Of a stretch of 64,000 nucleotides of DNA, positions 2,407 through 45,465 are shown piece by piece. Numbering within the stretch: position 1 is the first letter of the stretch; each line of letters opens with the position of its first letter. Where the stretch lies: NCBI RefSeq assembly GCF_000158195.2, contig NZ_GL987988.1, forward strand, positions 205,371 through 269,370, read 5' to 3'. Source of the stretch: Fusobacterium mortiferum ATCC 9817. GTDB lineage: Bacteria; Fusobacteriota; Fusobacteriia; Fusobacteriales; Fusobacteriaceae. Position numbers and translations under genes: made by a program. The notes below the pieces were generated by a model. That model did no database searches and was not told the origin of the DNA. It was given only the letters and a program-made list of their open reading frames with translations.

Positions 2407-2476
2407 ATATTGAAGAATTTTAGTTTTAGATTTAAAAAATTGTAATATCTTTATATGCAAAATTCTATAAGGAAAT

Positions 2477-2512
2477 ATGAGGATTGTATATTTTTAATAA
2501 AAATGGTACAAC
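2477..2512 (+). promoter_or_regulatory. Putative promoter of the first PL8 gene, degenerate GAG-type motif
   Basis: ATGAGGATTGTAT (2477-2489) resembles the ATGAAGATTTACA element found before other GAG genes. It contains a -35-like TTGTAT at 2484-2489. After a 17-nt spacer there is a weak -10 (TACAAC, 2507-2512). TTCTATAA lies just upstream (2463-2470), as in the stronger copies. This is the weakest member of the set. Confidence 0.45.
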
Positions 2513-2542
2513 TGAGATAAAAATATAGTAATGGAGGAGAGT

Positions 2543-4519
2543 ATGAGTGAATATTGCTTAATGATAGATAAAAGAAAAAAATATTTAATAGGGGAAGGGG
2601 AAGTAACTAAAGAGATTTTAGAAGAGTTAGATAGAAATGGAAGAAAAATAGTAGAAAAATTAGAGGAAATTTTAGAAAAAGATGGATATTTAGAGTATAG
2701 AGATAATATTGTAGTAATAAAAGAGCTGTATGGAGATATTTTAAGTTTAGCTAAAGTCTATAAAACAGAGGGAACTATCTATTATAATGATGAGAGAATA
2801 CTAGAGTTAATAAAGAATAGTTTAATTTTATTTGAAAAGGAATATTACAATATAGAATGTAGAGAGCATACTAATTGGTGGCAATGGGAGATAGGTATAC
2901 CTCTAATTTTAAATAATATATTTTCACTTCTTTATAAAGAGCTACCAAGAGAGATAATATTAAAGAATCTTAAAACAAGTAGATATTTTCAGCCAGATGC
3001 AAGATATTCTGGAAATAATCCAGTGGCAATTCATCCAAGTGGAAATCCCTTAAGATTATCAAGTGGGGGGAATAGAACAGATACTGTAAAAATATCTTTT
3101 TTTAGAGGAATGATCTTAGGAGACGAGGAGGAGATAAAAAAATCTTTAGAAGCCTTAGAAGATGTATGGAAATATAAAGATGATGATATAGATGGAGAGA
3201 ATGATGGTTTCTATAGGGATGGATCATTTATTCAACATGGATCAATTCCTTATGCTGGTGGTTATGGAGAGGTTTTGCTAACAGGATTAGGAGAGATTTT
3301 CTATAATATAAAGGATACAAAATTCTCTAAATATATCAAAGGATTAGAAAATTTGTATGAGATAATTTTTAATTCTTTTGAACCATTTTTCTATAATGGG
3401 AGATTTACAGATATGTTATCTGGAAGAGGGATAACTCGTGAAAATAATAGTGATAAAGTCATTGGACACAGAATATTAAATGATATTCTACTTATAAGTG
3501 GAGCTTTTGTTGGAGAACAAAGAGAGAAGATAGAAAATTTTGTAAAAAGAGAGGTTGAGAAATATGGAGGAGAAAGATATCTAGCGGAAGAAAAAAATCC
3601 ATTTATGTATCAGCTGTTGAAAGAACTATTAGAAGAGGAGAAAAAAGTAGAGTATAGAAATAGTATAAAAGTAACTAATAGAATGAATAGAGTTATGAAA
3701 AGAGAGGAAGAGTTTGCTGTAGGAATAGCTATGCACTCTTATAATGTAGGAAACTATGAGACTATGAATGGAGAAAATCTAAGAGGTTGGTATACAGGCG
3801 ATGGTGCTTATTATCTTTACGATAAAGATATAGATGGATATGATGAATATTGGAAAAATGTGGATATGTATTTTATTCCTGGAACTACTGAGATAAAAGG
3901 GAATATGGAAGGAGTAGATGCTCAAAGAAACTCTGAAACAAAATTTATAGAAATTAGAAAAGTAGGGGGAGTATCTTTAGATAGTACAGGAATAGCAATA
4001 ATGGATTTTTTAAATTGGAATGAGAAGTTAAAAAGTAGAAAGATATGGTTTTTCTTACAAGGAAAGACAGTGTTTATAGAGGATAAAATAGAGAGTGATA
4101 GGGAGATATATACTACTCTGTTTAATAAAAAGTATTTAAAGTTACCAAAAATATTTTTAGATGGGAATATAAATGAAGAGGAGTTAATAGAAAAATCTGT
4201 TAAAGAGATAGTGATAGAAGAATGGAAATTAAAATTCTTTAGAGAAGAAAGAGTAAAAGTAGAGATAGAAGAGAGAGGAAAATATTATTTTGTTAAAATT
4301 TGGAAGGAGTATGAGAGAAAAGAGAAAGGAATAATTTGGGAATTAATAAATTTAAAAAGTGAAGTTATAGATGAAATATTAAAGTTAAAAATAGAAGAGG
4401 AGCTTTATCAACTTGAAACAGATAAATATATGTATAAAATATTGTGGAATAAGAATGATGTTTGTACTATTGAGAATAAAGCAGAGCATAGAAGTGGAAA
4501 AATGACAATAGAAAATTGA
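2543..4519 (+). CDS. Cytoplasmic polysaccharide lyase family 8 (hyaluronate/chondroitin lyase type)
   Basis: PL8 enzymes cleave the hexosaminidic bond before uronate in hyaluronan, chondroitin or related chains by beta-elimination. The sequence keeps the aromatic patch N111-W-W, the catalytic-type Asn in SGGNR (N177), His232 in DGSFIQH and Tyr241 nine residues later, plus SGRGITR. There is no signal peptide, so the enzyme should work on imported oligosaccharides, unlike the secreted PL8 paralogue at 16345. I chose the ATG at 2543 because GGAGG lies 5 nt upstream; the in-frame ATG at 2531 has no SD. The N-terminal domain is short (658 aa in total). Exact substrate is unknown. Confidence 0.85.
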   Translation: MSEYCLMIDKRKKYLIGEGEVTKEILEELDRNGRKIVEKLEEILEKDGYLEYRDNIVVIKELYGDILSLAKVYKTEGTIYYNDERILELIKNSLILFEKEYYNIECREHTNWWQWEIGIPLILNNIFSLLYKELPREIILKNLKTSRYFQPDARYSGNNPVAIHPSGNPLRLSSGGNRTDTVKISFFRGMILGDEEEIKKSLEALEDVWKYKDDDIDGENDGFYRDGSFIQHGSIPYAGGYGEVLLTGLGEIFYNIKDTKFSKYIKGLENLYEIIFNSFEPFFYNGRFTDMLSGRGITRENNSDKVIGHRILNDILLISGAFVGEQREKIENFVKREVEKYGGERYLAEEKNPFMYQLLKELLEEEKKVEYRNSIKVTNRMNRVMKREEEFAVGIAMHSYNVGNYETMNGENLRGWYTGDGAYYLYDKDIDGYDEYWKNVDMYFIPGTTEIKGNMEGVDAQRNSETKFIEIRKVGGVSLDSTGIAIMDFLNWNEKLKSRKIWFFLQGKTVFIEDKIESDREIYTTLFNKKYLKLPKIFLDGNINEEELIEKSVKEIVIEEWKLKFFREERVKVEIEERGKYYFVKIWKEYERKEKGIIWELINLKSEVIDEILKLKIEEELYQLETDKYMYKILWNKNDVCTIENKAEHRSGKMTIEN

Positions 4520-4719
4520 ATATAAAAATAGAGTAGAAAAGTATAAGAGAAATATATAGAAATTAGTAGAAAAATGAAGATATAAAAATGAAGATTTACA
4601 ATTATAATTTATTGTGAGATAATCAAGGCACAACAGAGGTAATATGGTTTAATGAAAAGTTTGTTTGAAAAATATTAAAATAAACTAAAAACATTAAAAA
4701 TTATAGGAGGTAATTGGTT
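4520..4719 (+). promoter_or_regulatory. kduDI promoter with GAG-regulon motif
   Basis: In this AT-rich gap AAATGAAGATTTACA lies at 4586-4600. Its TTTACA (4595-4600) serves as the -35 box, followed by a 17-nt spacer and -10 GATAAT (4618-4623). The same ATGAAGATTTACA block with the same spacing occurs before the chondroitinase-type lyase, the sulfatase operon and the heparinase-family gene. A partial extra copy, ATGAAGATATA, starts at 4574. No terminator for the upstream lyase was evident. Confidence 0.7.
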
Positions 4720-5493
4720 ATGTTAAATAGTTTTAACATGGATTTCTTTTCTTTAAAAGGAAAAGTGGCAATAGTAACAGGAGGAAATACTGGACTAGGA
4801 CAAGCTTATGTTGTAGCACTAGCTAAAGCAGGGGCAGATCTGTTTGTAGTAACTTACGATAGAGCTTGGGATGAAACAAGAGCTATGGTAGAGGCTGAAG
4901 GAAGAAGAATAGAGTTCTTCCAAGCAGATTTAACAGACAGAGCACAAATAGATAAAGTAATTTCAGCATGTGTAGAGACATATGGAAAAATAGATATATT
5001 AGTAAATAATGCAGGAACAATAAGAAGAGCTCCACTATTAGAGTACAAAGATGAAGATTGGAAAGCAGTAATGGATATCAACTTAAATTCAGTATACTTC
5101 TTAAGCCAAGCAGCAGCAAAAGTAATGGTAGCACAAGGTTCAGGAAAGATAATCAACATAGCATCAATGTTATCATTCCAAGGAGGAAAATTTGTACCAC
5201 CTTACACAGCAAGTAAACATGGAGTAGCAGGAATAACAAAAGCATTTGCTAATGAATTAGCAGCACACAATATCCAAATCAATGCAATAGCACCAGGATA
5301 TATCAAAACAGCAAATACAGCACCAATAAGAGCAGATGAAAAGAGAAATGCAGAGATACTAAGTAGAATACCAGCAGAGAGATGGGCAGATCCATTTGAT
5401 TTAATGGGAGCAGTAGTATTCTTAGCAAGTAAAGCATCAGATTATGTAAATGGACACATCTTAGCAGTAGATGGTGGATGGTTAGTAAGATAA
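4720..5493 (+). CDS. kduD: 2-dehydro-3-deoxy-D-gluconate 5-dehydrogenase (KduD-type SDR)
   Basis: This short-chain dehydrogenase interconverts 2,5-diketo-3-deoxygluconate and 2-keto-3-deoxygluconate using NAD(H). It is the second step in handling the 4-deoxy-5-keto-uronate released from GAG disaccharides. The Rossmann motif TGGNTGLG is near residue 20, NNAG is in the middle, and the catalytic Ser/Tyr/Lys set sits in NIASMLSFQGG...PYTASKHG. The N-terminal NMDFFSLKGKVAIVTGG is typical of KduD. The length of 257 aa is normal. I chose the ATG at 4720 (SD AGGAGG, 9 nt away) over an in-frame TTG at 4714. It is followed by kduI 45 nt downstream in the same operon. Confidence 0.92.
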   Translation: MLNSFNMDFFSLKGKVAIVTGGNTGLGQAYVVALAKAGADLFVVTYDRAWDETRAMVEAEGRRIEFFQADLTDRAQIDKVISACVETYGKIDILVNNAGTIRRAPLLEYKDEDWKAVMDINLNSVYFLSQAAAKVMVAQGSGKIINIASMLSFQGGKFVPPYTASKHGVAGITKAFANELAAHNIQINAIAPGYIKTANTAPIRADEKRNAEILSRIPAERWADPFDLMGAVVFLASKASDYVNGHILAVDGGWLVR

Positions 5494-5538
5494 TAATTAC
5501 CAATTATAGAATAGAGAAGATATTAGGAGGAAATATAA

Positions 5539-6375
5539 ATGAAATTAGATGTAAGATATGCAAATCACCCAGAGGATTCAAAACGTTATACAACTGAGGA
5601 GTTAAGAAAACATTATTTTATAGGAACAATATTTGAAGCTGATGAAGCAGCACTAACTTACTCTCATGTAGATAGAATAATAGCAGGAGGAATAATGCCT
5701 GTAACTAAAGAGGTAAGATTAGAGGGAAGTAAAGAGTTAGGATCTGAATACTTCTTAGAGAGAAGAGAATTAGGAGTAATCAACATAGGTGGAGCAGGAA
5801 AAATAATAGTAGATGGAGTAGAGTATAAAATGAATCCAAAAGATGGATTATATGTAGGAATGGGTTCAAAAGAGTTAGTATTTATCTCTGAAGATGCTAA
5901 TAATCCAGCAAAATTCTATGTAAACTCAGCACCAGCACACATGACATATCCAATAGTAAAAATAGATATTGAGAAAGCTAACCCAGTAAAATTAGGAAGC
6001 TTAGCAACATCAAATGAGAGAACAATATATCAATATGTACACCCAGCAGTATGTAAATCTTGTCAATTACTAATGGGAATGACAGTATTAGAGCCAAATA
6101 ACATGTGGAATACAATGCCTTGTCATACACATGAGAGAAGAATGGAAGTATACTTCTACTTCAACATGCAACCAGAAACAAGAGTATTCCATTTAATGGG
6201 AGAGCCACAAGAGACAAGACACATAGTAGTAGGAAATGAGCAAGGAGTAATATCACCATCTTGGTCAATTCACTCGGGAGTAGGAACAAGTAACTACACA
6301 TTTATCTGGGGAATGGTAGGAGAGAACCAAACATTTACAGATATGGACCATGTAGCAATGGAAGATTTAAGATAA
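5539..6375 (+). CDS. kduI: 5-dehydro-4-deoxy-D-glucuronate isomerase
   Basis: KduI isomerises 4-deoxy-5-keto-uronate, formed by non-enzymatic opening of the sugar released by GH88, into 2,5-diketo-3-deoxygluconate, the substrate of KduD. The protein is 278 aa, the normal family length. The opening [23 protein letters not shown] and the cupin metal motif [17 protein letters not shown] (His-x-His and Glu ligands) are diagnostic. The SD AGGAGG lies upstream. It is the last gene of kduD-kduI, before a terminator. No downstream KDG kinase or KDPG aldolase is encoded in this window. Confidence 0.95.
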
Positions 6376-9492: not shown

Positions 9493-11055
9493 ATGTTAAA
9501 AAAAATATTATTAGGGGTAGTTGCAATATTAGCTCTTATAGGATGTGGAGAAGAAAAAGAGGAGAAAGTAACAGGACCAGTTAAAAAATTAGAAGGGTCA
9601 GTTATTACAGAAAAACATAAAGAATTTACAGTATTTGCAATATTTCAAGGAAAGGCTTTTGATTCTGAATTGCCAGTATTTAAAAAAGCTGAAGATATGA
9701 CAAATGTAAAAATGGTAGGAGTAGCATCAAAAAATCAAAGTGATGAAGTACAAGCCTTTAACTTGATGTTATCATCAGGAAATTTACCAGATGTAATAGC
9801 TTATGAATTGACACCAGATTTAGAAAAATTAGGAATAGATGGAGGATTAATTCCGTTAGAAGATTTAATAAAGGAACATGCTCCAAATATTACAAAATTT
9901 TGGGAAGAGAATCCTCAATATAAAAAGGATGCTGTAGCAGTAGATGGACATATCTATATGATACCTAACTATAATGATGTTAAAAATTTAAGTTTAACTC
10001 AACAATACTATATAAGAAAAGATTGGTTAGAAAAATTAGGATTAGAAGAACCTAAAACAGTTGATGAGCTATATAATGTATTAGTAACATTTAGAGATAA
10101 AGACCCAAATGGAAATGGGAAAAAAGATGAAGTACCTATTTTTATTAGAGGAAATGTAGTAAGAAAGATATTACTACCATTAACAGATATATTTAAGGCA
10201 CAAGCAGTGTGGTATGCAGATAATGGAACACCAAAATTTGGACCTGCAGAACCAGAATGGAAAGATGCTATGATAAATTTAGCAAAATGGTATAGAGAGG
10301 GATTAATAGACCAAGAGGTATTTACAAGAGGAATGACTTCAAGAGACTATATGTTAAGTAATGACTTAGGTGGATTTACTAATGACTGGCCAAGTGCTGG
10401 AACATATAATGAAAGTTTGTCAAAAACAATACCTGGTTTTGATTTTTCAGTAATGTTACCACCAGAGTATAAAGGAAATAATAAAACATTCTTTGCAAGA
10501 CCTAACTATATGGGAGCTTGGGGAATTACAATAGCTGCTAAAGATCCAGTAACAATAGTTAAATACTTCGATTTCTGGTATTCAGAAGAGGGAAGAAGAT
10601 TATGGAACTTTGGAATTGAGGGAGAAGATTATACAATAATTGATGGGAAACCTCAGTTTACTGATAAAATTTTAAAAGATCCTAATGGAAAAAATCCAGT
10701 AGCAGCGATTAGAGAAACTGGAGCTCAATATAGATTGGGAATGTTCCAAGATGCAGAGGCTGAAAAGCAAACATCTGGAGAAGCTGCATTAAAAGCAGTA
10801 GACCTATATGTAAAAAATAATGTAGTTGATCTACCAATGCCACAGTTAAAATATACAAAAGATGAGCTGAAAGAGTTCTTAAAAATAGAAGCTCAACTTC
10901 GTTCTGTGTCAGAAGAGATGGGACAAAAATGGATATTAGGTGTATCAGATGTAGAAAAAGATTGGGATAGCTATATAGAGAGATTAAATTCTTTAGGATT
11001 AAAGAGAGCTCAAGAAATCCAAAAAAATGCATATGATAGATTTATGAAAAATTAA
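9493..11055 (+). CDS. Lipoprotein sugar-binding protein of the ABC importer
   Basis: This extracytoplasmic solute-binding protein has a lipobox, LIGC, with the lipidated cysteine at residue 18. It is large (520 aa), as in the LplA/AlgQ-type binders of oligosaccharides. DPNGNGKKDE (about 204-213) is an EF-hand-like calcium loop, as known in alginate and GAG-disaccharide binding proteins. Conserved stretches such as AWGITIAAKDPVTIVKYFDFWYS and MGQKWILGVSDVEKDWDSYIERL recur in the second binding protein at 36000-37532, so the two are paralogues. It is the last gene of the ABC operon. By analogy with the S. moniliformis protein Smon0123 it probably binds unsaturated hyaluronan or chondroitin disaccharides. 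Confidence 0.88.
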   Translation: MLKKILLGVVAILALIGCGEEKEEKVTGPVKKLEGSVITEKHKEFTVFAIFQGKAFDSELPVFKKAEDMTNVKMVGVASKNQSDEVQAFNLMLSSGNLPDVIAYELTPDLEKLGIDGGLIPLEDLIKEHAPNITKFWEENPQYKKDAVAVDGHIYMIPNYNDVKNLSLTQQYYIRKDWLEKLGLEEPKTVDELYNVLVTFRDKDPNGNGKKDEVPIFIRGNVVRKILLPLTDIFKAQAVWYADNGTPKFGPAEPEWKDAMINLAKWYREGLIDQEVFTRGMTSRDYMLSNDLGGFTNDWPSAGTYNESLSKTIPGFDFSVMLPPEYKGNNKTFFARPNYMGAWGITIAAKDPVTIVKYFDFWYSEEGRRLWNFGIEGEDYTIIDGKPQFTDKILKDPNGKNPVAAIRETGAQYRLGMFQDAEAEKQTSGEAALKAVDLYVKNNVVDLPMPQLKYTKDELKEFLKIEAQLRSVSEEMGQKWILGVSDVEKDWDSYIERLNSLGLKRAQEIQKNAYDRFMKN

Positions 11056-11440: not shown

Positions 11441-11729
11441 GACGAAGTATAATAATACAAGAAGAATAATACAAGATTATTATTACAAGAAGAATAAATA
11501 TATTATATATACACATATACAAACTGAAAAAAGCTTTGGAAGTAGAATCTTTAACTTATTATGGTTAAAAAATATATAGAAAATTGAATATAGAAAGATA
11601 GAAAAATAATAATGCTGTTAAAAAATAAAAAAATAATTTATTTTAAAATTATTTTTGAAAATAAATATAATAAAATACTTTGCAGTATTCTCTCTTAATA
11701 AAAGAAAATGGAATATAGAATCATAATGA

Positions 11730-11758
11730 TTTATTTTGTGAAGAAATTATGATAATAT
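11730..11758 (+). promoter_or_regulatory. Putative promoter of the autotransporter-PL8 operon
   Basis: ATAATGATTTATT places a -35-like TTTATT at 11730-11735, followed by a 17-nt spacer and -10 TAATAT at 11753-11758. The GATTTA core and TAGAAT just upstream (11716-11721) resemble the stronger GAG promoters, but the match is partial. Confidence 0.45.
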
Positions 11759-11832: not shown

Positions 11833-14800
11833 ATGCAGAAGAAAAAATTATTATTATTATCAGCAATAGTTTTATTGATGGGAACAAATAGTTATGGAAG
11901 ATTATACCCTAAAGATGGAGAAGTAATTACCCAAGAGAATATAGAAAAACATTTGGGAGAAAAACCAGATAAGAATGGTGTAGCAACAATTGTAAGTATT
12001 GCTAAAAATGTGGGGGCTAGTGTTGATGAGAAAGTAAATTTAGAGTTGGTAAATTCTGAAGATGGAGTTCTAAAAAAAGTTATAAATATAGCAAGTGGGA
12101 GTTCTGATATTGCGACTACTAATAATGGAATTATAAAAGCTACTAATAATGGTGGAAAAGGAGTAGAGATAGTTTCTATTCAAAGTGGGAAGTTTGTAAA
12201 TAATGGAACTATTGGTATTAATGGTACTGGTGGAAAAGGAATAAATATAACTGGAGCTAATGTAAAAACAGAAAATAATGGAACAATAGAAGTTAATGGG
12301 GGAGCAAGTGGAGTTGTTGTAAGTAATGATAGTGCTTCTTTTGTAAATAATGAAACTGGAAAAATAATAGCAACTGGTGAAAACTCAAAAGGAATAGAAA
12401 TAACAAAAGGAACAGCAGAAAATAAAGGTATAATAGAAGCAAAAGATGGTGCTATCGGAGTTTATGTAAATGGAGGAAACTTAACAAATAGTGGTAAAAT
12501 AATAGCTTCTGGAGTAAATACTGATGGAGTAAGAATAGAAAAAGGTAATTTTACAACAGATGAAAATAGTGTGATTGAAGTAAATGGAAGTGATAAATTA
12601 ACTTCTGGTAAATCAGAAGCAAGTGGTGTAAAAGTAAATGGAACTTCTAACTTTGTAAATAATGGGATTATTAAGGTATCGGGAACTACTGATGGAGCAT
12701 ACTCTGGATATCAATCAAAAGGAATAAATATAAATAGTGCAACTGCTACTGCAGAAAATAAAGGAACTATTATTGTTGAAAGAAATGGAATAGGAGTAGG
12801 AACAAAAGGAACATTTACAAATAATGGTGGAATAAAAGTAAGTGGAAGTGGAATAGGAATAAATGTAATAGATAGTGGAAATGCCATTAATAATGAAATA
12901 ATAGAAGCTGATGGAAAAAGTTATGGAATACAAGTATCAGCTAAAGGAACAGCAACAAATAAAGGAACTATTATTGTAAAAAATGGTTCAACAGGAATAA
13001 CAACGTCAAAGGTAGATGGAAATACAACAAGTTATACTGATATAATTAATGAAGGAGTTATTGAAGTAAGTGGAGATAATTCGACAGGAATGCAGGCTAA
13101 TGATAATAGAAAAGTTGTAAATAATGAAGATATATTAGTAAATGCAGGAAAATATACTTCAGGAATGAAGACTGCTGGAAAAAATGCGTTAGCAGAGAAT
13201 AATGGAAATTTAACTATTAATGGAGATAAAAAAAATACTTCTAATGGAATGCTTGCTCAAAATGGTGGAAAAGTAGTTAATGGAAAAGATGGAGTAGTAA
13301 AAGCTAGTGGGAAAACAACTTCAGCAATGTCAGCTAGTGGAAAAGGTTCAAAAGCAGAAAATATTGGAAAAACAGAATTATTTGATAATGCTATTGGAAT
13401 GAAAATAGAAAAAGAAGGGATAGGAACTAATAGTGGAACTATAAAAGGAAGTGGAACAGGGATAAATCTAATTGGTGGTATTTTTGTAAATAGTGGAGAG
13501 ATTAGCATAGGAGATATTGCTATTCAATCTTCAACTACTAGCAAAAAAGAGAATAATCAAACTGTAATTGTGCCAACTAATAATACTGTTTACTTAAAAA
13601 ATGGAAGTAAGATAAATGGAAAAATAGTAGGAAATACTGGAATAGATGTACTTGCTTTAGAAGGAAAAGATGGAGAATATAATAACCTTGATGTTTCAAA
13701 ATATGAAGCTATAACTGTTAGAAATGGAGATGCTACAATCTCAGATTCTACAATAGCATTAGAATATAACAAAGGAACAGAAGATTATTTAAATACTAGT
13801 AATAATGAATTGGATAAATTAGAAAATTCCTCTACTGCAAAGATAGATAGTACAGGAAATTTAACTATGAAAAATAGTAATTTAATTATAGATTTTAAAG
13901 ATTCGTTGACAAACCCAAATGCAACAGAAAATCCAATAATAGATACTGGAAGTTTAAGTTTTGAAGGAAAGACAAGTTTTGTTTTTAATTCAAGTGATGG
14001 AAGAACAGAGTTTAATTTAAATGAAGCTTTAGGTTTGGAAGGAAAAGATAAGATAAATTTAAAAGAGGCAAAATTAGAAACAACAGCTGTATGGGATTAT
14101 CAAGTTGATGAAAATGGAGATCTTATTGCTAAGAAAGAAACTTATGATAATGTAATTACAGATAGTAGATTAGATAATTTTGCAAAGATATTCGAAAAAA
14201 ACAGAAGTAAGATGTCAGGAGAATTTTTTAAACAAGTAGTTGGAGAGCTGGATACTTTAAAAACAGAAGAAGAATTTACAAAAGCTATGGGACAAATTTC
14301 TGGTGGGATACATGGATATACTGTGGATATAGCAGCTATCAATTCAAGAAATTTAGTTAATACTATGAAAAATAAAGCATTAACAAGAGATTATTTAACA
14401 GCTAGACCATTAAATTCTTGGTATCAAGATGTAATATATTTGGATAATAATCAAAGATTAGGTGGACTTATGTCTGGAAGTTATCAAGAAAATGGAATAC
14501 TTGGAATCTCAGAAAAACAATCTGTAAAAAATGGAAGATTAGGATTTGTATATGGTGGAAGTAAAGGAAAAGCTAAGTTCGATGGTGGAGATAGTGGAGA
14601 AATAGCAACAGATAATATTTATGTAGGACTTTATTATAACCATAATTTAAGTGAAAAATTAGCATTAAATACAAATTTCTCTTTTGTTTATGGACACAAT
14701 AACATAAATAGAAGAGTGAATATAGGAAACTTTAATGAGGAATTAAAATCTCATTATCCTACATATGCTATGGGAGTAGGAACAAGTGCTATCTATACTA

Positions 14801-16326
14801 TTAAAGATGATGCTAAAAATAAAGCTTCATTCTATGCTGGAATAGATGTAAATAGAATAATGCAAGGGAATATAAATGAGAAAGAAGAGGAGAGAATTCA
14901 TTCAACAAATCAAGATAATATAAATTTAATGGTAAAAAATCAAAATGCTAATGAATTTTCTTATTACTCAATTACTCCACATGCAGGATTTATGTTCCAA
15001 AATACAGGGTATATTTTTGATAGAAAATATTTAGTAGGAGCAGATTTAGCTTGGGAAACAGAGTTAGGAAATATTAAAGATGGAAAAAGATTAAATATGC
15101 AAGGTATAACGGACCAATATAAAGTAGGAACTATGGAGAGAGAAAATGTATTTTCTACAAGTATCTTTGGACAATTAGATATAACAGAATCTTTAGCTTT
15201 AAATGGTAGATATACATCTTCAATATCAGATGAGTATGATGCTGATATGCTAACAATGGGATTAACATATAAGATGGATACTATGGCAGATACTCCAATT
15301 TTTGGACCTCTTTTAAGTGGTATAGAAAATACTAGATTATCATCAGATAGATGGAGTGGAACTTTTGCATTGATGATGGAGTCAGAAGATGACTCAGATA
15401 GAGTATATTATTCACAAATAGATAATTCATTAAGTAGTGGGGATTATGCTACATCAATGAAGATGAAACCTAAGTTTACTTTGAGCTTAAATGATAAGAA
15501 AACAAAATGGTCATACTATTTTGAAGGTTACTATATGGCAAATGATTTCTTAAAAGATACTAAGGCTGGAGAAGCAGAACAAAAGGCTACAAGACTTCAT
15601 GGGGAAGCTAGATGGAGTGATTCATATTCTAAGGGAAGATATGGATTTAACATAGGATATAGAAATGAAACATCAGATAAGCCAGCATTATCATATACTA
15701 AAGGACCAGCAAGAGTAGAAAGAGGGGTTCATCAATTAAGATTAACACCAAACTTCTCGTATAATTTAGGTAGTGGATTTAGATTAGATATGAAAACTAC
15801 AGGAATATTTGAGTATAACTACACTGGACTTTTAGAAGGACAAATGGATTTCTTAATGGAAAATGAACATAATTTAGTGTATACTGGATTTATGCCAAGA
15901 TGGCAATTAAGAATGGGATATTATAGAGAAGATAGATGGATGGATCATGATGGGATAAAGTATTCTAGTTATAATGCTAATTCAGGAGAATATGTATTTG
16001 CTAAAGGAGCAGGAAGATATCAAATGAATCAATTAAGACCATCAGCAACTTACTATTTTGGAAATGGAGATAGTGTAACATTTGCTCTAAGAGTACCACT
16101 AGGAAACGGAGCTTGGTATAACTCATTAGATAATAATAAGAAAGATTCTGAAAGCTATGAAACAAGGTATACAGTAAAGTATAACCATGTGGTAGTACCT
16201 GGATTTAATATCTTTGGAGAACTTACTTTCTTAGATTTAAAAACTAAAGTAACGAAAGAAAATGATAGAAAAGTTACAAGAGCATACTCATTTAGACCAA
16301 CAGTAGGATTCAGTTATAATTTCTAA
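11833..16326 (+). CDS. Autotransporter adhesin with an added C-terminal porin-like beta-barrel
   Basis: A signal peptide (MQKKKLLLLSAIVLLMGTNSYG) precedes a long Gly/Asn-rich passenger (about residues 30-775). The passenger has many NNGTI-type imperfect repeats of about 20-30 residues, as in fusobacterial beta-helix adhesins. A type V autotransporter barrel follows (about 860-1148), ending in the strand MLTMGLTYKM. Such proteins normally stop there. This one continues for about 350 residues (1149-1497) with alternating aromatic and polar beta-strands and ends in VGFSYNF, a terminal-Phe outer-membrane signal. That tail resembles an oligosaccharide porin of the KdgM/OmpG kind. It is the first gene of an operon with a secreted PL8 lyase 18 nt downstream, so adhesion to GAG and uptake of its fragments are plausible roles. 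The second-barrel reading is inference. Confidence 0.85.
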   Translation: MQKKKLLLLSAIVLLMGTNSYGRLYPKDGEVITQENIEKHLGEKPDKNGVATIVSIAKNVGASVDEKVNLELVNSEDGVLKKVINIASGSSDIATTNNGIIKATNNGGKGVEIVSIQSGKFVNNGTIGINGTGGKGINITGANVKTENNGTIEVNGGASGVVVSNDSASFVNNETGKIIATGENSKGIEITKGTAENKGIIEAKDGAIGVYVNGGNLTNSGKIIASGVNTDGVRIEKGNFTTDENSVIEVNGSDKLTSGKSEASGVKVNGTSNFVNNGIIKVSGTTDGAYSGYQSKGININSATATAENKGTIIVERNGIGVGTKGTFTNNGGIKVSGSGIGINVIDSGNAINNEIIEADGKSYGIQVSAKGTATNKGTIIVKNGSTGITTSKVDGNTTSYTDIINEGVIEVSGDNSTGMQANDNRKVVNNEDILVNAGKYTSGMKTAGKNALAENNGNLTINGDKKNTSNGMLAQNGGKVVNGKDGVVKASGKTTSAMSASGKGSKAENIGKTELFDNAIGMKIEKEGIGTNSGTIKGSGTGINLIGGIFVNSGEISIGDIAIQSSTTSKKENNQTVIVPTNNTVYLKNGSKINGKIVGNTGIDVLALEGKDGEYNNLDVSKYEAITVRNGDATISDSTIALEYNKGTEDYLNTSNNELDKLENSSTAKIDSTGNLTMKNSNLIIDFKDSLTNPNATENPIIDTGSLSFEGKTSFVFNSSDGRTEFNLNEALGLEGKDKINLKEAKLETTAVWDYQVDENGDLIAKKETYDNVITDSRLDNFAKIFEKNRSKMSGEFFKQVVGELDTLKTEEEFTKAMGQISGGIHGYTVDIAAINSRNLVNTMKNKALTRDYLTARPLNSWYQDVIYLDNNQRLGGLMSGSYQENGILGISEKQSVKNGRLGFVYGGSKGKAKFDGGDSGEIATDNIYVGLYYNHNLSEKLALNTNFSFVYGHNNINRRVNIGNFNEELKSHYPTYAMGVGTSAIYTIKDDAKNKASFYAGIDVNRIMQGNINEKEEERIHSTNQDNINLMVKNQNANEFSYYSITPHAGFMFQNTGYIFDRKYLVGADLAWETELGNIKDGKRLNMQGITDQYKVGTMERENVFSTSIFGQLDITESLALNGRYTSSISDEYDADMLTMGLTYKMDTMADTPIFGPLLSGIENTRLSSDRWSGTFALMMESEDDSDRVYYSQIDNSLSSGDYATSMKMKPKFTLSLNDKKTKWSYYFEGYYMANDFLKDTKAGEAEQKATRLHGEARWSDSYSKGRYGFNIGYRNETSDKPALSYTKGPARVERGVHQLRLTPNFSYNLGSGFRLDMKTTGIFEYNYTGLLEGQMDFLMENEHNLVYTGFMPRWQLRMGYYREDRWMDHDGIKYSSYNANSGEYVFAKGAGRYQMNQLRPSATYYFGNGDSVTFALRVPLGNGAWYNSLDNNKKDSESYETRYTVKYNHVVVPGFNIFGELTFLDLKTKVTKENDRKVTRAYSFRPTVGFSYNF

Positions 16327-16344
16327 TAGGAGGAAGGAGAAAAG

Positions 16345-18762
16345 ATGAAAAAGAAATTAATATTAATATGTGCAATACTAGCTTTAACAACTACTTCTTT
16401 CTCTCAAGAGGTAGAAAAAATAGAGAATACAAAAAAACAGGAGATTTCTCAACAGGAGATAAGAGATTATAAAAAGATAAGAGATGGTTGGGTGGAGTTT
16501 TTAACTGGCTTACCACAAGATAATAGAATTTTGGAGATGTCAAAAGCTGACATCTCTAGAATAGTGGCTATGAATGAGGGAGTAGCAGATAAAGTTTATG
16601 AGAATATGAACTTTGATAAAAATAGAACATCTATTTTTAAAGGTGCTGAAAATATGAAAAATGGAGTTCATGTAATGAGACAATATGAGAACTTAGTAAA
16701 AATAGCCAAGGCATATGCAACTCCAGGAACTAAATACTATAAAAATGAAAAAACTAAACAAGATATAATAGAGAGTTTAGATTGGTTATATGATAATGCT
16801 TATCATGAAGGATTACCAGAACTAGGAAACTGGTGGCAATGGGAATTAGGAATTCCTAAAAATTTAAATGATTTATTAACTTTAGTATATGATGATGTAC
16901 CAGCAGAAAAAAGAACGAAATACTTAAAAGCTTCTCAATATTTCCAACAATATGCAGAGTGGTCAGGTGTAAGTCCATCGGCTTCTTACTCTTCATCTCC
17001 AGATAAGAGAATTTCTACTGGGGGAAATAGAATGGATACATCAATAATCTCATTTTTAAGAGGGGTATTGATGGAAGATAAGGTACAAGTATTAGATGGA
17101 TTAAATGCTGTTGCAGATGTTGGAGAGTATGTAACATCAGGAGATGGATTCTATAGAGATGGTTCTTTTATTCAACATGACAATGTAGCATATAATGGAA
17201 CATATGCAGCAGTACTTTTTAATGGACTAGGTTCTATTTTATGGTTAATTAATGGAACAGAGTTTAAAATAAAAGACCCAAGAATAGATAATATTTATGA
17301 GTCTATTTTAAATGGATATAGCTACCTTATGATAAATGGAGGAGTGAATGACTCTGTAAATGGAAGATCTATTTCAAGAGATAAATCTAATGATATTGAG
17401 AAAGGAAGAGCGTTAGTTAGTTCTTTTGCAATGTTATCAGAGGGGGCTAGTCCAGAGTATAAAGAAAAGTTACAATCGTTAATAAAGAAATTAATTCTAG
17501 ATAATAATTCTTATTATACAATAGACAGAGTAAGTAATCAAACTATAAAAAATATCTTAATAGATATAATGAATAATAAAAGTATAAAACCTTTAGAAGT
17601 AAATGGGACAAAAGTTTTTGGTGCCATGGATAGAGCTGTATATTTCAATGGAAAAGATGGAAAAGTAGTAGTGTCAATGCACTCATCAAGAGTAGCTAAC
17701 TTTGAGACAATGAATGGAGAAAATATAAAAGGTTGGTATACTGGAGATGGAATGACATATATCTATGGTAAGGATTCAAGTGCATTTACAGAATTTTGGC
17801 CAACAGTAGATGACTATCATCTACCAGGAGTAACTAATAGTTTAAATCCTAGAGGAGATAAATCAGGAGAGAGAAGAATGATAGGATTTGTATCTCCAAA
17901 ATCTTTTGTAGGAGGAGTTGAAACTGGAAGAGAATCATTTGTAGGAATGGATATGATATCTTGGAATAAACAAACTGAGATGAAAAAATCTTGGTTTATG
18001 ATAGATGGAGTTATTTTAGCAATAGCTTCAAATATAGATAGTAGAGATGGAATAATTCATACTACAATAGATAATAGAATTTTAGAAGATGGAAAAATCT
18101 ATTTAGATGGAAAGCAATTAAAAGAGGAGATTACAATTCAAAATCCTAAAAATCTTTCTATAAACTTTAATGAAAACTATCCAGAAGAAAATATTGGATA
18201 TAAGATAGTAGAAGCTCCTGAGGTAGTAGTAAAAGTAACTGAAAATAAAGGTAGTTGGAAAGATATTGGAGGAAACTCTGATAAAGAGATAACAAAAAAA
18301 TATTTTACAACATATATTAATCATGGAAAAAATCCTAAAGATGCAAAATATGCTTATGTAATTTTACCAATGTTCTCTAAAGAAGAGGTGGATAGTTTTG
18401 ACACTTCAAGATTTGAAATAGTAAAAGCTGATAATGAGGCTCATATAGTTAAAGATAGACAAACTAATACAGTGGGTATAAATTTCTGGAAAGATAAACC
18501 ACAAAAATTTGGAGGAATAAAAACTTACTCTACCCTTTCAGTCTTAAAGAAAGAAAAAGGAGATATCTTAGATTTATATGTAAGTGATCCAGCTCAAATA
18601 CAAAATTATGATTCAAAAATTGAATTAGATGGAAAATATGAGTTAGTAGAAAGTACAGATAAGAATATCAAGCTAAATATTAAGAACTTTATAACAGAAA
18701 TAGAAGTGGATTTAAAAAATAATGGTGCTACTAAATATATAAAACTAAGAAAAGTAAAATAG
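16345..18762 (+). CDS. Secreted polysaccharide lyase family 8 (hyaluronate/chondroitin AC lyase type)
   Basis: The protein has a signal peptide (MKKKLILICAILALTTTSFS, then QEV), so it acts in the periplasm or outside. The alpha/alpha-toroid domain carries the aromatic patch N162-W-W and the catalytic triad N228 (GGNR), H278 (GSFIQH) and Y287. The spacings of 50 and 9 residues match pneumococcal hyaluronate lyase (N349, H399, Y408). NGRSISR supplies the conserved Arg. The beta-sandwich follows from about residue 420, with the NFETMNGENIKGWYTGDGMTYIY motif. Length is 805 aa. It is co-transcribed with the autotransporter. The likely products are unsaturated disaccharides from hyaluronan and/or chondroitin. 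Confidence 0.92.
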   Translation: MKKKLILICAILALTTTSFSQEVEKIENTKKQEISQQEIRDYKKIRDGWVEFLTGLPQDNRILEMSKADISRIVAMNEGVADKVYENMNFDKNRTSIFKGAENMKNGVHVMRQYENLVKIAKAYATPGTKYYKNEKTKQDIIESLDWLYDNAYHEGLPELGNWWQWELGIPKNLNDLLTLVYDDVPAEKRTKYLKASQYFQQYAEWSGVSPSASYSSSPDKRISTGGNRMDTSIISFLRGVLMEDKVQVLDGLNAVADVGEYVTSGDGFYRDGSFIQHDNVAYNGTYAAVLFNGLGSILWLINGTEFKIKDPRIDNIYESILNGYSYLMINGGVNDSVNGRSISRDKSNDIEKGRALVSSFAMLSEGASPEYKEKLQSLIKKLILDNNSYYTIDRVSNQTIKNILIDIMNNKSIKPLEVNGTKVFGAMDRAVYFNGKDGKVVVSMHSSRVANFETMNGENIKGWYTGDGMTYIYGKDSSAFTEFWPTVDDYHLPGVTNSLNPRGDKSGERRMIGFVSPKSFVGGVETGRESFVGMDMISWNKQTEMKKSWFMIDGVILAIASNIDSRDGIIHTTIDNRILEDGKIYLDGKQLKEEITIQNPKNLSINFNENYPEENIGYKIVEAPEVVVKVTENKGSWKDIGGNSDKEITKKYFTTYINHGKNPKDAKYAYVILPMFSKEEVDSFDTSRFEIVKADNEAHIVKDRQTNTVGINFWKDKPQKFGGIKTYSTLSVLKKEKGDILDLYVSDPAQIQNYDSKIELDGKYELVESTDKNIKLNIKNFITEIEVDLKNNGATKYIKLRKVK

Positions 18763-18834: not shown

Positions 18835-18855
18835 TATAGAAAAATAGTATCTACA

Positions 18856-18920
18856 TTATTCTATAAAATGAATTATACAGAATAATGAAGATTTACATTA
18901 GAAATGATTTTGATTAAGAT
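18856..18920 (+). promoter_or_regulatory. Promoter of the chondroitinase-type lyase with full GAG-regulon motif
   Basis: TTATTCTAT (18856-18864), a short spacer, then AGAATAATGAAGATTTACA ending at 18897. The arms TTATTCT and AGAATAA form an inverted repeat. TTTACA (18892-18897) is the -35 box, followed by a 17-nt spacer and -10 TAAGAT (18915-18920). Nearly the same arrangement precedes the sulfatase-GH88 operon, where bases 37934-37976 match over 40 bp apart from the central spacer. Confidence 0.75.
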
Positions 18921-18977
18921 AATTATATAGTATTAAGTATTATTATAAAAATTAAATTTATGAGAAAAGAGGTTATG

Positions 18978-21908
18978 ATGACAAGAAAAAATAGGATTAC
19001 CTTTAGAAAGATGTTGCTTTCTATTGCAGTTTTAATCAATAGTTATGCTTATGGAAATTATCAATTTGAAGGAGGAATTCCAGAAAATATAATTGTTGGA
19101 AAGAATTCAAAAATAGAGATATCAAAAGAGATAGTAAAAGATGGAGAGCAATCTTTAAAATGGAAATTTAAAAAAGGAGATAAACTCTCTATAAAAGGAG
19201 ATGTAGGATATAAACCTTTTCAAGAGGGAGGAAAGGAAAAATCAAGAGCAAGTTTTGCTATGTGGATATATAATAAAACTCCAATAAAAGATAAACTAAA
19301 GGTAGAGTTTAAAAAGTATGGAGAAACGAAGTCATACTTTGAAATAAATATGGATTTTACAGGTTGGAGAACTATGTGGGTGCAGTATGATAGAGATATG
19401 AAGGGAAGAGCAATTACAGGAATGGATGAAATAGTATTTGTTGCTCCTAATTCTGATGGAGAGATATATTTAGATCAGATTATACCTTCTATTTTGATAG
19501 ATCCTAGATATAATGCTAGAGATGAGCAGGTAAATTTTGTAAATCTGCCAGCTGATTACACAGCTAATGCTCACTGGATGGCTCTATATAAAAATTATAA
19601 TCAAATAAAGAAAAGTAATTTAAAAGAGATAACATCTCAAGAGAGAATAGGATTACAAAAGATAGGGGAAAAGTTAAGAAAAGATATATTGAAAAGTGTA
19701 AAAGTAAAAGATAAAAATATTAGAGAGAAGAGAGAAAAGTTAGAAGAGTATAAAAAACAATTCTTAGCTACTCCACAGTTGATAGAAATCTATGAAGAGT
19801 TATCAAAAGAGGAGTTTGCTTTGATAGATTATCTTCCACTTCAAGAGTTTGGAACTTATTTAAGAGAGCTAGCATATATGTATAATTCTACAAATGATAA
19901 AAACCAACAAGAAGAGATATATTCTATATTTAAAGATGCTCTTGATTTTATGTATAGTCAAGGGTGGACAAAGGGAAGCTCTCAAGGAACAATACACCAT
20001 CTTGGATATAATATAAGAGAGGTATATCAAAGTATCTTACTTATGAGAGAACCGCTTTTATCTCATAGAGATTTAATTAAAGCTAAAGAGATGGTAATGT
20101 GGTATAGTGCTATGGGAATGATATATACTCCAAGTGAAGAGATAAAAGGTGTAAATATAGATGTATTGAATACAATGTTATCTGGAATGTTAACAGCTAT
20201 AATGTTAAATGAAGATGAAAGAGTAGCAACTGCACAACTTAGACAATTCAATAATTATCTAGCTTATGGAATAAATTATACACCTGGGCTTTCTGGTGGA
20301 TTTAAAGATGATGGCTCTGTATTTCATCATATGCAAAATTATCCAGCTTATGCAAAAGGAGCTTTTGAAGGATTAACTCCAATAATCTATTACTTAGGAA
20401 ATACAGACTTTGCTTTAGATGAAATTGCCTATAATAAGGTAAAAAAATCTGTTCTCATGTCAAGAATCTATTCTAATAAATATAATTGGTTAATTAGTAT
20501 AAGTGGAAGACATCCAAATGATAGTTTTAAAATATCCACTGATGTATTTAGATATACAGCATATGGGAAAAAAGAGGGTATAGATAAGGAGCTAGCTGAA
20601 GCATATTTAAGACTTGATAGTGATGGAAAATTTGCCAAAGAATTAAAAAAACTTGGGTATAGAGAGGAAGAAACTCCAAATGGAGCTTGGACAATGAATA
20701 TGGGATCGCTACAACTTCATAGAAGAGATGAGTGGTTAGTGGGAGTAAAGGGATTTAGTAGATATTTGGTAGGAAATGAAACTTATAAAAAAAATAATCT
20801 ATATGGAAGATATATGAGTTATGGAACTGTTCAAATATTACAAAACTCTTTAAAAGAGAGTGGATTTGTACAAGAGGGATGGAACTGGGCACATTATCCT
20901 GGAACTACTGCCATTGCTTTGCCACTGGAAGAGATGAAATCAAGCATAGCTCAAGTAGATACATTTAGTGGAATAGAGGAGATGTTACTTTCAGATGAAA
21001 CTTATTCTGGAGGAAATAACTTAAATAACAATGGTATGTTTGCTATGAAATTACACGAAAATCCAAAATATAATGGAAGCCATAGAGCTAGAAAATCTGT
21101 ATTTTTCTTTGATAATAGAGTGGTATTATTAGGTAGCAATATAGAAAATGACGATAAAGTTAATGAAACTCATACTACTCTTTTCCAAAACTATTTAGGA
21201 GATGGGAAAATTGAAAAAGTAGAAAAGGTAACGAAGGGAGATATAGTTTTAATAGATAGTCAAAATAATATCTATGCAGTTGCTGATGGAGAGGTACATT
21301 ATAAAAGAGAAAAACAACACTCTTTTGACCAAAAAGAGGGAACTCCAACTGAAAATAATTATGAGTTAGCGTATATTAACCATGGAAAAAATCCAAAAGA
21401 TAAGGGATATGAGTATAGTATCTTAGTTAAAGGAAATGAGGAGGAACAAAATAAATTTAAAATTGATAAAGGATATGAGGTACTTAAAAAAGATTATAAT
21501 GCACATATAGTGGAAGATAAAGTATCTAAAATGAGGGGATATGCTTTATTTGAAAGTGGAAAGATAAAGGATAGGTATATCTCTGAAATAGATACCCCAT
21601 CTATGATAATGATTGCTCCAATGGAAGCTGGGATAGAACTTAGTTTTGTTGATCCAGATTTAAGACTTTATGAAGGAAGAGATGAAAGCCAGTATGATAA
21701 AAATGGTAAAATGAGAGAGGTAAGTATATATTCTAGAGCTTGGAATAAAAATAATTCAATACCTCATACTTCAAAGGTTGTTTTAAATGGAAAATACAAA
21801 TTAGAAGAGAATAAAGGGATAAAAGTTGAATATCAAGATGAGAAAACAATTCTTTATATAACAACTACTTATTCTAAAGTTATAAAAATTAAGTTACAAA
21901 AAATTTAA
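18978..21908 (+). CDS. Secreted chondroitin-sulfate ABC lyase-like protein (PL8 superfamily)
   Basis: The architecture matches chondroitinase ABC: a signal peptide (to about residue 30), an N-terminal carbohydrate-binding beta-domain (FEGGIPENI... SLKWKFKKGD), a catalytic alpha-toroid and C-terminal beta-sandwiches. Residues aligning with Proteus chondroitinase ABC I are visible: H451 in VFHHMQNYPAY (its H501), Y458 (Y508), R511 in SGRHP (R560) and E601 in GNETYKKNN (E653); the spacings agree within 2 residues. I prefer the ATG at 18978, with AGAGG 5 nt upstream, over the in-frame ATG at 18960, which has no SD. Length is 976 aa. It is a single-gene unit with its own regulated promoter and terminator. 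Sulfation preference and endo/exo mode cannot be read from the sequence. Confidence 0.88.
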   Translation: MTRKNRITFRKMLLSIAVLINSYAYGNYQFEGGIPENIIVGKNSKIEISKEIVKDGEQSLKWKFKKGDKLSIKGDVGYKPFQEGGKEKSRASFAMWIYNKTPIKDKLKVEFKKYGETKSYFEINMDFTGWRTMWVQYDRDMKGRAITGMDEIVFVAPNSDGEIYLDQIIPSILIDPRYNARDEQVNFVNLPADYTANAHWMALYKNYNQIKKSNLKEITSQERIGLQKIGEKLRKDILKSVKVKDKNIREKREKLEEYKKQFLATPQLIEIYEELSKEEFALIDYLPLQEFGTYLRELAYMYNSTNDKNQQEEIYSIFKDALDFMYSQGWTKGSSQGTIHHLGYNIREVYQSILLMREPLLSHRDLIKAKEMVMWYSAMGMIYTPSEEIKGVNIDVLNTMLSGMLTAIMLNEDERVATAQLRQFNNYLAYGINYTPGLSGGFKDDGSVFHHMQNYPAYAKGAFEGLTPIIYYLGNTDFALDEIAYNKVKKSVLMSRIYSNKYNWLISISGRHPNDSFKISTDVFRYTAYGKKEGIDKELAEAYLRLDSDGKFAKELKKLGYREEETPNGAWTMNMGSLQLHRRDEWLVGVKGFSRYLVGNETYKKNNLYGRYMSYGTVQILQNSLKESGFVQEGWNWAHYPGTTAIALPLEEMKSSIAQVDTFSGIEEMLLSDETYSGGNNLNNNGMFAMKLHENPKYNGSHRARKSVFFFDNRVVLLGSNIENDDKVNETHTTLFQNYLGDGKIEKVEKVTKGDIVLIDSQNNIYAVADGEVHYKREKQHSFDQKEGTPTENNYELAYINHGKNPKDKGYEYSILVKGNEEEQNKFKIDKGYEVLKKDYNAHIVEDKVSKMRGYALFESGKIKDRYISEIDTPSMIMIAPMEAGIELSFVDPDLRLYEGRDESQYDKNGKMREVSIYSRAWNKNNSIPHTSKVVLNGKYKLEENKGIKVEYQDEKTILYITTTYSKVIKIKLQKI

Positions 21909-35316: not shown

Positions 35317-35396
35317 TTTTTCTGGAATAATATCAGAAAAAGGAGGTTTTTTTCCTAGATTGATATTAAAATTTCCGTTAGTCAGATACCAGTTAT

Positions 35397-37885: not shown

Positions 37886-37996
37886 ATCATCATTATTCTA
37901 TTTTGTATTGAAAGAGAATAATGATGATTTCGATATTCTATTTTGTATTAAAAAAGAATAATGAAGATTTACATTAAGCCGAAATTTTAATATTAT
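37886..37996 (+). promoter_or_regulatory. Duplicated operator and promoter of the sulfatase-GH88 operon
   Basis: There are two direct copies of a 37-bp block (37894-37930 and 37934-37970, 34 of 37 identical). Each contains TATTCT...AGAATA as an inverted repeat; in the first copy the arms extend to a perfect 14 bp (37886-37899 and 37915-37928). The second copy runs into ATGAAGATTTACA, with -35 TTTACA (37968-37973), a 17-nt spacer and -10 TATTAT (37991-37996). Confidence 0.75.
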
Positions 37997-39445: not shown

Positions 39446-39466
39446 ATAGTTGTAGGAGGAAATAAG

Positions 39467-40657: not shown

Positions 40658-40697
40658 TAAATTAAAATAATATAGGAATATTGAGGAGAATAAAACA

Positions 40698-42113: not shown

Positions 42114-42128
42114 TTCTCTGGAGGAATT

Positions 42129-45312: not shown

Positions 45313-45349
45313 ATTTTAAAAAATAAAATAGGATATGTAAATCTTTGTT
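45313..45349 (-). promoter_or_regulatory. Promoter of the heparinase-family gene, GAG-regulon motif
   Basis: On the minus strand AACAAAGATTTACA ends at 45336. TTTACA (45341-45336) is the -35 box, followed by a 17-nt spacer and -10 TAAAAT (45318-45313). The AAGATTTACA core equals that of the other strong copies, though the upstream arm is not obvious. Confidence 0.65.
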
Positions 45350-45465
45350 TTTCTTTATCTTTTTTTAGAAAAAAATGTAGATAAAATAGAAATAGAAAAT
45401 TAAATATAGAAATTTGAATATAAAAAAAATAGTAGTTTTATCCTTAATAATATAGGATAATATAA

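What the first reader, a model, noticed from the sequence alone, without database searches (positions are those of the whole stretch)
18856..18920. Shared promoter module before lyase, kdu, sulfatase and heparinase-family genes
ATGAAGATTTACA, or its AAGATTTACA core, with TTTACA acting as the -35 box and a -10 box exactly 17 nt later, occurs at 4586-4623, 18884-18920, 37961-37996 and, on the minus strand, 45349-45313. Weaker versions sit at 2477-2512 and 11722-11758. The two best copies also share TATTCTAT about 20 bp upstream and an AGAATAA arm. A conserved element touching the -35 box is what a class II activator site looks like, so these units probably form one regulon, most likely of the local AraC protein. 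I know of no published motif of this form.
Basis: partly seen in the sequence, partly recalled or inferred. Interest (0 to 1): 0.7.

Follow-up and report, generated by a model that had tools for sequence, protein, structure and literature searches.

The report
Operator for host-polysaccharide degradation genes
A short DNA switch, conserved across two families of fusobacteria, sits directly against the promoters of genes that break down animal connective-tissue sugars (chondroitin and related polysaccharides), and it tracks with one membrane-bound AraC-type activator that very probably turns these genes on together.

Summary
The four main sites are where stated, with TTTACA and a -10 box 17 nt apart. 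The exact 14-mer AATGAAGATTTACA occurs three times in the 2.67-Mb genome, all in this cluster. The 10-mer core alone is not specific (32 places versus 28 for a control). A matrix built only from other genomes ranks the four main sites 1, 2, 3 and 5 of about 128,000 window positions. Across 61 Fusobacteriaceae genomes, 14 of 16 intergenic matches to a 17-nt consensus lie upstream of glycosaminoglycan genes, in 12 genomes that all carry an ortholog of the local AraC gene. One GAG-positive relative without the AraC lacks the site. Both Leptotrichiaceae genomes with the AraC gene have the site. The element is a 14-bp half-site, AGAAWAATGAAGAT, abutting the -35 box. Its partner is a direct copy at exactly 14-bp pitch (kduD type, conserved across genera) or an inverted copy (sulfatase and lyase type). 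The two 'weaker' sites fail the matrix test but have similar sequences in a relative. The AraC reading frame is broken by a frameshift in this assembly. Binding and activation are inferred, not shown. It is a new operator and regulon of a known kind.

The parts
18849..18862 (-). Site A, distal inverted half-site (AGAATAATGTAGAT read on minus)
   Evidence: 13/14 match to the proximal arm, 16 bp between arms
18879..18892 (+). Site A, promoter-proximal half-site AGAATAATGAAGAT before chondroitin lyase gene 18960-21908
   Evidence: rank 1 (tied) by matrix from other genomes
18892..18920 (+). Promoter A: -35 TTTACA 18892-18897, 17-nt spacer, -10 TAAGAT 18915-18920
   Evidence: transcription start not mapped
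37886..37928 (.). Site B1: inverted repeat ATCATCATTATTCT-N15-AGAATAATGATGAT, perfect 14-bp arms, between the SBP2-AraC genes and the sulfatase operon
37934..37970 (+). Site B2: tandem copy of B1 (37 nt, 92%, 40-bp spacing); proximal half-site AGAATAATGAAGAT 37955-37968
   Evidence: top score in window by matrix from other genomes; orthologous site upstream of the same sulfatase in G006, G008, G011, G032, G034
37968..37996 (+). Promoter B: -35 TTTACA 37968-37973, 17-nt spacer, -10 TATTAT 37991-37996
4568..4581 (+). Site D, distal direct half-site AGAAAAATGAAGAT
   Evidence: 14-bp pitch conserved upstream of kduD in G006, G008, G034
4582..4595 (+). Site D, proximal half-site ATAAAAATGAAGAT before kduD
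   Evidence: rank 3
4595..4623 (+). Promoter D: -35 TTTACA 4595-4600, 17-nt spacer, -10 GATAAT 4618-4623
45341..45354 (-). Site C, proximal half-site AGAAAAACAAAGAT before the heparinase II/III-family gene
   Evidence: rank 5 with -10, rank 4 by motif; not conserved before the G006 and G011 orthologs
45369..45382 (+). Site C, possible distal inverted half-site AAAAAAATGTAGAT
   Evidence: degenerate
45313..45341 (-). Promoter C: -35 TTTACA 45341-45336, 17-nt spacer, -10 TAAAAT 45318-45313
2471..2512 (+). Probable weak site before the PL8 lyase gene 2531-4519: half-site-like 2471-2484, -35 TTGTAT 2484-2489, -10 TACAAC 2507-2512
   Evidence: rank 317 by matrix; similar GAAATAATGATGATTGACT before a PL8-family gene in G034
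11717..11758 (+). Probable weak site before the autotransporter/PL8 operon: AGAATCATAATGAT 11717-11730, -35 TTTATT 11730-11735, -10 TAATAT 11753-11758
   Evidence: rank 58 by matrix; aligned to two upstream regions in G034 (E 1.7e-8 and 7e-7)
33877..35316 (-). C-terminal part of the AraC-type regulator: second membrane segment, linker, HTH_18 DNA-binding domain
35397..35978 (-). N-terminal part of the same regulator: first membrane segment and most of the extracytoplasmic region; separated by a frameshift at a T7 run
   Evidence: orthologs are uninterrupted frames of 626-748 aa
36000..37532 (-). Solute-binding protein SBP2, upstream of and probably co-transcribed with the AraC gene
   Evidence: similar to SBP1; conserved beside GAG genes in relatives
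2531..4519 (+). Target: PL8-family lyase
4714..6375 (+). Targets: kduD and kduI (metabolism of unsaturated uronic acid)
9493..11055 (+). Cluster gene: solute-binding protein SBP1 of the GAG-disaccharide ABC importer family
   Evidence: PDB 5XS8, E 1.2e-205
11833..18762 (+). Probable targets: autotransporter and PL8-family lyase
18960..21908 (+). Target: PL8-family chondroitin ABC lyase-like protein
38036..43348 (+). Target operon: sulfatase, GH88 unsaturated glucuronyl hydrolase, MFS/GPH transporter, two LUD-domain proteins
43393..45282 (-). Target: heparinase II/III-family lyase

Best explanation
The element is the operator of a glycosaminoglycan (GAG) utilisation regulon controlled by the membrane-bound AraC-family activator encoded at 33877-35978. 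The regulator has two membrane segments flanking an extracytoplasmic region and a C-terminal AraC-type DNA-binding domain. When it senses GAG-derived material, most likely unsaturated disaccharides directly or through SBP2, it binds a pair of 14-bp half-sites (consensus AGAAWAATGAAGAT). The proximal half-site abuts a weak -35 box (TTTACA) that has a -10 box 16-17 bp downstream. From there it recruits RNA polymerase in class II fashion and switches on lyases, sulfatase, GH88, kduD/kduI and transport genes. The distal half-site is a direct repeat at 14-bp pitch (kduD type) or an inverted repeat (lyase and sulfatase type). Shown here: the element, its conservation, its restriction to GAG operons and its co-occurrence with the AraC gene. 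Inferred: binding, direction of control, ligand and class II contact.
For: (1) A 17-nt consensus searched in 61 genomes gave 39 places; 16 are intergenic and 14 of those precede GAG genes. (2) The 12 genomes with such sites are all among the 14 with a close AraC ortholog (E<1e-60), against 0 of 47 others (Fisher p about 5e-11; genomes are not independent). (3) G005 has PL8, GH88, kduD and kduI orthologs but no close AraC ortholog (best match is the DNA-binding domain only, E 2e-9) and no site: a negative control. (4) GntR1 and GntR2 orthologs occur in G004, G007, G009, G010, which have no site. (5) Matrix from other genomes finds the window sites; matrix from the window finds relatives' GAG promoters, 10/56 versus 0/95 other upstream regions at 14 bits or more. 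(6) The two Leptotrichiaceae genomes with an AraC ortholog both carry TAGAAAAATGTATATATAAAATT-N3-GATTTACA plus a -10 at the head of their GAG operons. (7) The AraC DNA-binding domain is 71-82% identical in most site-bearing genomes (65% in G023) with near-invariant recognition segments. (8) The AraC gene is the last gene of the operon controlled by the element in several relatives. (9) A scan of pitches gives one clear peak, direct 14 bp, in both the kduD group and the Cetobacterium-like group.
Against: No binding, expression or start-site data exist. AraC and the GAG genes are neighbours, so co-occurrence could reflect the whole locus; only one GAG-positive AraC-negative genome was available. 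The window's AraC frame is broken. Site C is not conserved before the G006 and G011 heparinase orthologs. Distance between inverted half-sites varies (14-16 bp in the window, about 3-5 bp in relatives). A 14-bp direct pitch is unusual: 21 bp is reported for several AraC-family motifs (PMC3870299).
Confidence: 0.83

Rival explanations
1. A different regulator co-inherited with the locus (one of the two GntR proteins, or a regulator encoded elsewhere) binds the element, and the AraC protein controls something else.
For: Two GntR genes lie in the cluster. AraC and GAG genes are physically linked, so distribution alone cannot fully separate regulators.
Against: GntR1 and GntR2 orthologs occur in G004, G007, G009 and G010, which lack the site; the element tracks the AraC ortholog in two families; in relatives the AraC gene closes the operon behind the element.
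Confidence: 0.1
2. The conserved DNA is only a strong or weak promoter with an A-rich UP element, read by RNA polymerase alone and kept by shared ancestry.
For: The sites are AT-rich and adjoin a -35 box; a common -10 box with a weaker -35 box is reported for F. nucleatum promoters (PMC11005410). TTTACA alone is common here (54 plus 62 copies in the window).
Against: The AGAAWAATGAAGAT half-site and its paired copy carry non-A/T positions kept across two families and are almost confined to GAG promoters; paralogous promoters within one genome share it.
Confidence: 0.05
3. The AraC protein binds the element but represses rather than activates, or does both depending on half-site arrangement.
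For: Two arrangements (direct and inverted) exist; AraC-type proteins can repress from some sites (general knowledge).
Against: The proximal half-site ends at the upstream edge of the -35 box with the -10 box 16-17 bp further down in nearly every copy, the usual geometry of activation; the -35 is non-consensus.
Confidence: 0.08

Closest known systems
RhaS/RhaR of Escherichia coli (AraC family)
   Same: Sugar-responsive AraC-type activators binding inverted repeats of two half-sites; RhaR uses two 17-bp half-sites 17 bp apart (PMC3870299). From general knowledge, the proximal RhaS half-site overlaps the -35 box.
   Different: Soluble proteins, unrelated site sequence and longer half-sites. Here only lyase and sulfatase promoters have the inverted form; kduD, GH88 and transporter promoters use direct repeats.
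ToxT toxboxes of Vibrio cholerae
   Same: A short (13-bp) A/T-rich box used as direct repeats at some promoters and inverted repeats at others, with tight spacing to the -35 region (PMC3089052).
   Different: Different regulator and genes, soluble regulator, and ToxT sites lie upstream of the -35 box (class I). Comparison of architecture only.
AraC-family sugar regulators with 21-bp tandem sites (Bacillales, Bacteroides, Enterococcus RhaR; PMC3870299) and Caldicellulosiruptor AraC-type regulators with upstream tandem repeats (PMC8579813)
   Same: Local AraC-type regulator in a carbohydrate locus, tandem sites upstream of mapped promoters suggesting activation.
   Different: Their repeats are 21 bp apart or widely spaced; here the pitch is 14 bp.
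Bacteroides hybrid two-component GAG regulators (BT3334, BT4663; PMC9067506)
   Same: Membrane sensor with an AraC-type DNA-binding domain in one protein, controlling chondroitin or heparan genes in response to unsaturated disaccharides.
   Different: No kinase or receiver domain was detected in the fusobacterial regulator; a one-component membrane AraC.
Fusobacterial GAG clusters of Streptobacillus moniliformis, F. mortiferum and Leptotrichia goodfellowii (PMC5430744)
   Same: The same kind of gene cluster with the Smon0123-type importer.
   Different: A text search of that paper found no AraC protein and no operator for the cluster.

Membership tests
AraC/XylS-family regulator | C-terminal double-HTH domain (PF12833/PF00165) | tested here: met
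   HTH_18 E 7.4e-16, HTH_AraC 3.6e-9 in window 33880-35316; orthologs likewise
AraC/XylS-family regulator | Intact reading frame in this genome | tested here: not met
   Frameshift at a T7 run splits it into 193 and 479 aa; orthologs are single frames. Sequencing error or real lesion not distinguishable here
Membrane-bound one-component AraC regulator | Two hydrophobic segments flanking an extracytoplasmic region | tested here: met
   Hydropathy: L125 protein 21-51 and 258-291; window fragments show one segment each. Sensor fold not identified
Hybrid two-component system | Histidine kinase and receiver domains | tested here: not met
   Pfam finds only the AraC HTH in three full-length orthologs, apart from one sub-threshold match
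Class II activator-dependent promoter | Activator site abutting or overlapping the -35 box, -10 at 16-18 bp | tested here: met
   24 aligned sites, -10 at 16-17 bp in nearly all
Class II activator-dependent promoter | Transcription requires the bound activator | not testable with these tools
   Needs expression data
Regulon operator | Restricted to functionally related genes and conserved at orthologous promoters | tested here: met
   14 of 16 intergenic matches in 61 genomes precede GAG genes
RhaS/RhaR-type site | 17-bp inverted half-sites about 16-17 bp apart | tested here: not met
   Half-sites are 14 bp; only some promoters are inverted, with variable spacing
AraC-family tandem site with 21-bp periodicity | Direct repeats 21 bp apart | tested here: not met
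   Single peak at 14 bp

The most novel reading that the evidence does not exclude
The fusobacterial GAG activator uses an unusual site grammar: 14-bp half-sites packed head to tail without a gap (14-bp pitch, 1.33 helical turns, sometimes three in a row as before the Cetobacterium-like perm1 genes) or as inverted pairs, always ending at the -35 box. Neighbouring AraC-type domains would then sit on different faces of the DNA, a binding mode that differs from the known 21-bp tandem AraC sites.
Probability: 0.3. Interest if true: 0.6.

Novelty: new member of a known kind. Interest (0 to 1): 0.52.

Why it matters
Little is known of fusobacterial transcription control, and I found no described regulator or operator for GAG degradation in this phylum. 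This gives a testable operator and regulator for using host connective-tissue and mucosal polysaccharides, conserved across two families, and a matrix that predicts regulon members in unannotated genomes. The 14-bp tandem pitch is a concrete structural question about how AraC-type domains can pack on DNA.

Tried and rejected
- AAGATTTACA core as a genome-wide marker: at background.
- Genome-wide inverted repeat TATTCT-N14-19-AGAATAA: 11+9 versus 5+3 in control, too weak alone, though three copies are at sites A, B1 and B2.
- GntR1 or GntR2 as the regulator: distribution does not fit.
- Intergenic AAGATTTACA copies outside the cluster (L001, L022) lie 13 and 29 nt before a YchF-like GTPase gene and a RidA-like gene and lack the half-site; rejected as regulon members.
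- Weak sites at 2477 and 11722 as good motif matches: rejected by score, kept as probable by similarity to upstream regions in G034.
- Literature: no paper on a fusobacterial GAG regulator found; the library is incomplete.
- Structure prediction of the AraC sensor was not run, because most orthologs here come from sources outside that tool's stated rules.

Full report
WHAT THE WINDOW IS. The window lies at G000:C2:205371-269370 of a 2.67-Mb genome; the window is 29.8% GC. Relatives found by sequence are Fusobacterium and Cetobacterium. Size and GC suit F. mortiferum, a species named as having a GAG cluster (PMC5430744), but the species was not tested. The cluster encodes three PL8-family lyases, a heparinase II/III-family protein, two sulfatases, a GH88 enzyme, kduD/kduI, an ABC importer, a PTS, an SSF and an MFS/GPH transporter, an autotransporter, two GntR regulators and an AraC regulator. 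SBP1 matches the Smon0123-type GAG-disaccharide-binding protein at E 1.2e-205; the sulfatase at 38036 matches chondroitin 4-O-sulfatase structures among others.

CHECK OF THE OBSERVATION. All four main sites are at the stated places with a 17-nt spacer. The exact 14-mer AATGAAGATTTACA occurs three times in the genome, all in this cluster.

ANATOMY. The unit is a 14-bp half-site, AGAAWAATGAAGAT, whose last T is the first T of the -35 box TTTACA. Site A (18849-18892) has an inverted partner, ATCTACATTATTCT, 16 bp away. Before the sulfatase gene a perfect inverted repeat with 14-bp arms (37886-37928) is followed 40 bp on by a diverged tandem copy (37934-37970) that carries the promoter-proximal half-site. 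Site D before kduD is two half-sites head to tail (4568-4581, 4582-4595). Site C before the heparinase-family gene is degenerate.

CONSERVATION, FORWARD TEST. A matrix from the window sites was applied to upstream regions in loci of relatives: 10 of 56 upstream of genes with a homolog in this cluster reach 14 bits, 0 of 95 upstream of other genes (Mann-Whitney p 8e-12). The sulfatase operon in G006, G008, G011, G032 and G034 is preceded by TGAATAGTGRAGATTTACA; kduD in G006, G008 and G034 by AGAAAAATGTAAAT-GTAAAATTGAAGAT-TTAC or close variants; GH88, perm1 and the autotransporter in Cetobacterium-like genomes by AGAAAAAnGnnnAT-nnnAAAnnGnWGAT-TTACA.

CONSERVATION, REVERSE TEST. A matrix trained only on other genomes ranks the window sites 1 (37955), 2 (18879), 3 (4582) and 5 (45354, minus) of all positions on both strands when the -10 box is included; rank 4 is the distal half-site of site D. 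In 60 Markov-simulated 64-kb sequences the mean number of positions at 19.7 bits or more was 0.017; the window has 3.

GENOME-WIDE SPECIFICITY. AAWARDGRWGATTTACA in 61 genomes gave 39 places. The reversed control gave 28 by my addition, so the raw count alone is not striking; what differs is location. 23 places lie in stop-free frames of 122 codons or more. Of 16 intergenic places, 14 precede GAG genes; the two others are beside a likely tRNA gene in G042 and before an SDR gene in G058. In G000 itself there are four matches: three here, one inside an 899-codon frame.

WHICH REGULATOR. The 12 genomes with GAG-upstream sites are all among the 14 with a close AraC ortholog; 0 of 47 others have one (Fisher p about 5e-11, with the caveat that genomes are related and the genes are linked). 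G005 has GAG genes, no close AraC ortholog and no site. GntR orthologs occur without sites in four genomes. In the order, only 19 of 96 genomes have the AraC protein at E 1e-25 or better; two are Leptotrichiaceae-type (G083, G084), and both have the tandem element plus a -10 box: before a 359-aa outer-membrane-like gene heading the GAG operon in G083, and before kduD in G084. This was a prediction made before looking. The AraC DNA-binding domain is 71-82% identical in most site-bearing genomes and 65% in G023.

SITE GRAMMAR. Scoring the sequence upstream of the proximal half-site at pitches 8 to 33 gives one clear peak: direct, 14 bp, for kduD (10.0 bits, next best -1.2) and for the Cetobacterium-like group (9.5, next best -3.4). 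The Fusobacterium sulfatase/lyase group shows an inverted partner instead. Mixed direct and inverted use resembles ToxT (PMC3089052); the 14-bp pitch differs from the 21 bp reported for several AraC-family sugar regulators (PMC3870299).

THE REGULATOR ITSELF. The frame is broken at a run of seven T in CTTTTTTTC, roughly window 35418-35426: the upstream 193-aa frame and the downstream 479-aa frame together match single frames of 626-748 aa in relatives. Homopolymer error and a real lesion cannot be told apart here. Hydropathy shows two membrane segments flanking an extracytoplasmic region; no sensor domain was found by Pfam, and kinase and receiver domains were absent. SBP2 upstream of it may take part in sensing; this is speculation.

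VERDICT. Regulon operator: about 0.97. AraC as the binding protein: about 0.87. Activation in class II position: about 0.8. Signal identity: open.

Noticed in passing
window 35397-35450 (AraC gene): The AraC regulator is split by a frameshift at a T7 homopolymer; all full-length orthologs are single frames. Sequencing error or a true loss or phase-variable tract.
   Followed up: partly
window 11318-11440: About five imperfect 23-bp direct repeats (TATCAATAAAAATTGTGAGGGGG type) lie in the 777-bp gap before the autotransporter gene; function unknown.
   Followed up: no
window 36000-37532: SBP2 is similar to the GAG-disaccharide binding protein SBP1 but lies beside the AraC gene and has no permease genes next to it, as in several relatives; possible co-sensor.
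   Followed up: partly
L074 (G005): A relative with GAG lyase, GH88 and kdu genes but no AraC ortholog has other repeated elements upstream (for example TAACCGATTAACGTG), suggesting regulator replacement.
   Followed up: no
L133/L134 divergent LUD1-autotransporter regions; L138/L140 SBP2-heparinase regions: A second variant, AAAATAGAATATTTACW with a -10 box at about 17, occurs in Cetobacterium-like genomes that carry two AraC paralogs; it may be the site of the paralog.
   Followed up: partly
L175 15601-16623 (G034) and L209 975-2054 (G083): Outer-membrane-protein-like genes of 340-359 aa sit behind the element or a related sequence; candidate GAG-oligosaccharide porins absent from the window cluster.
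   Followed up: no
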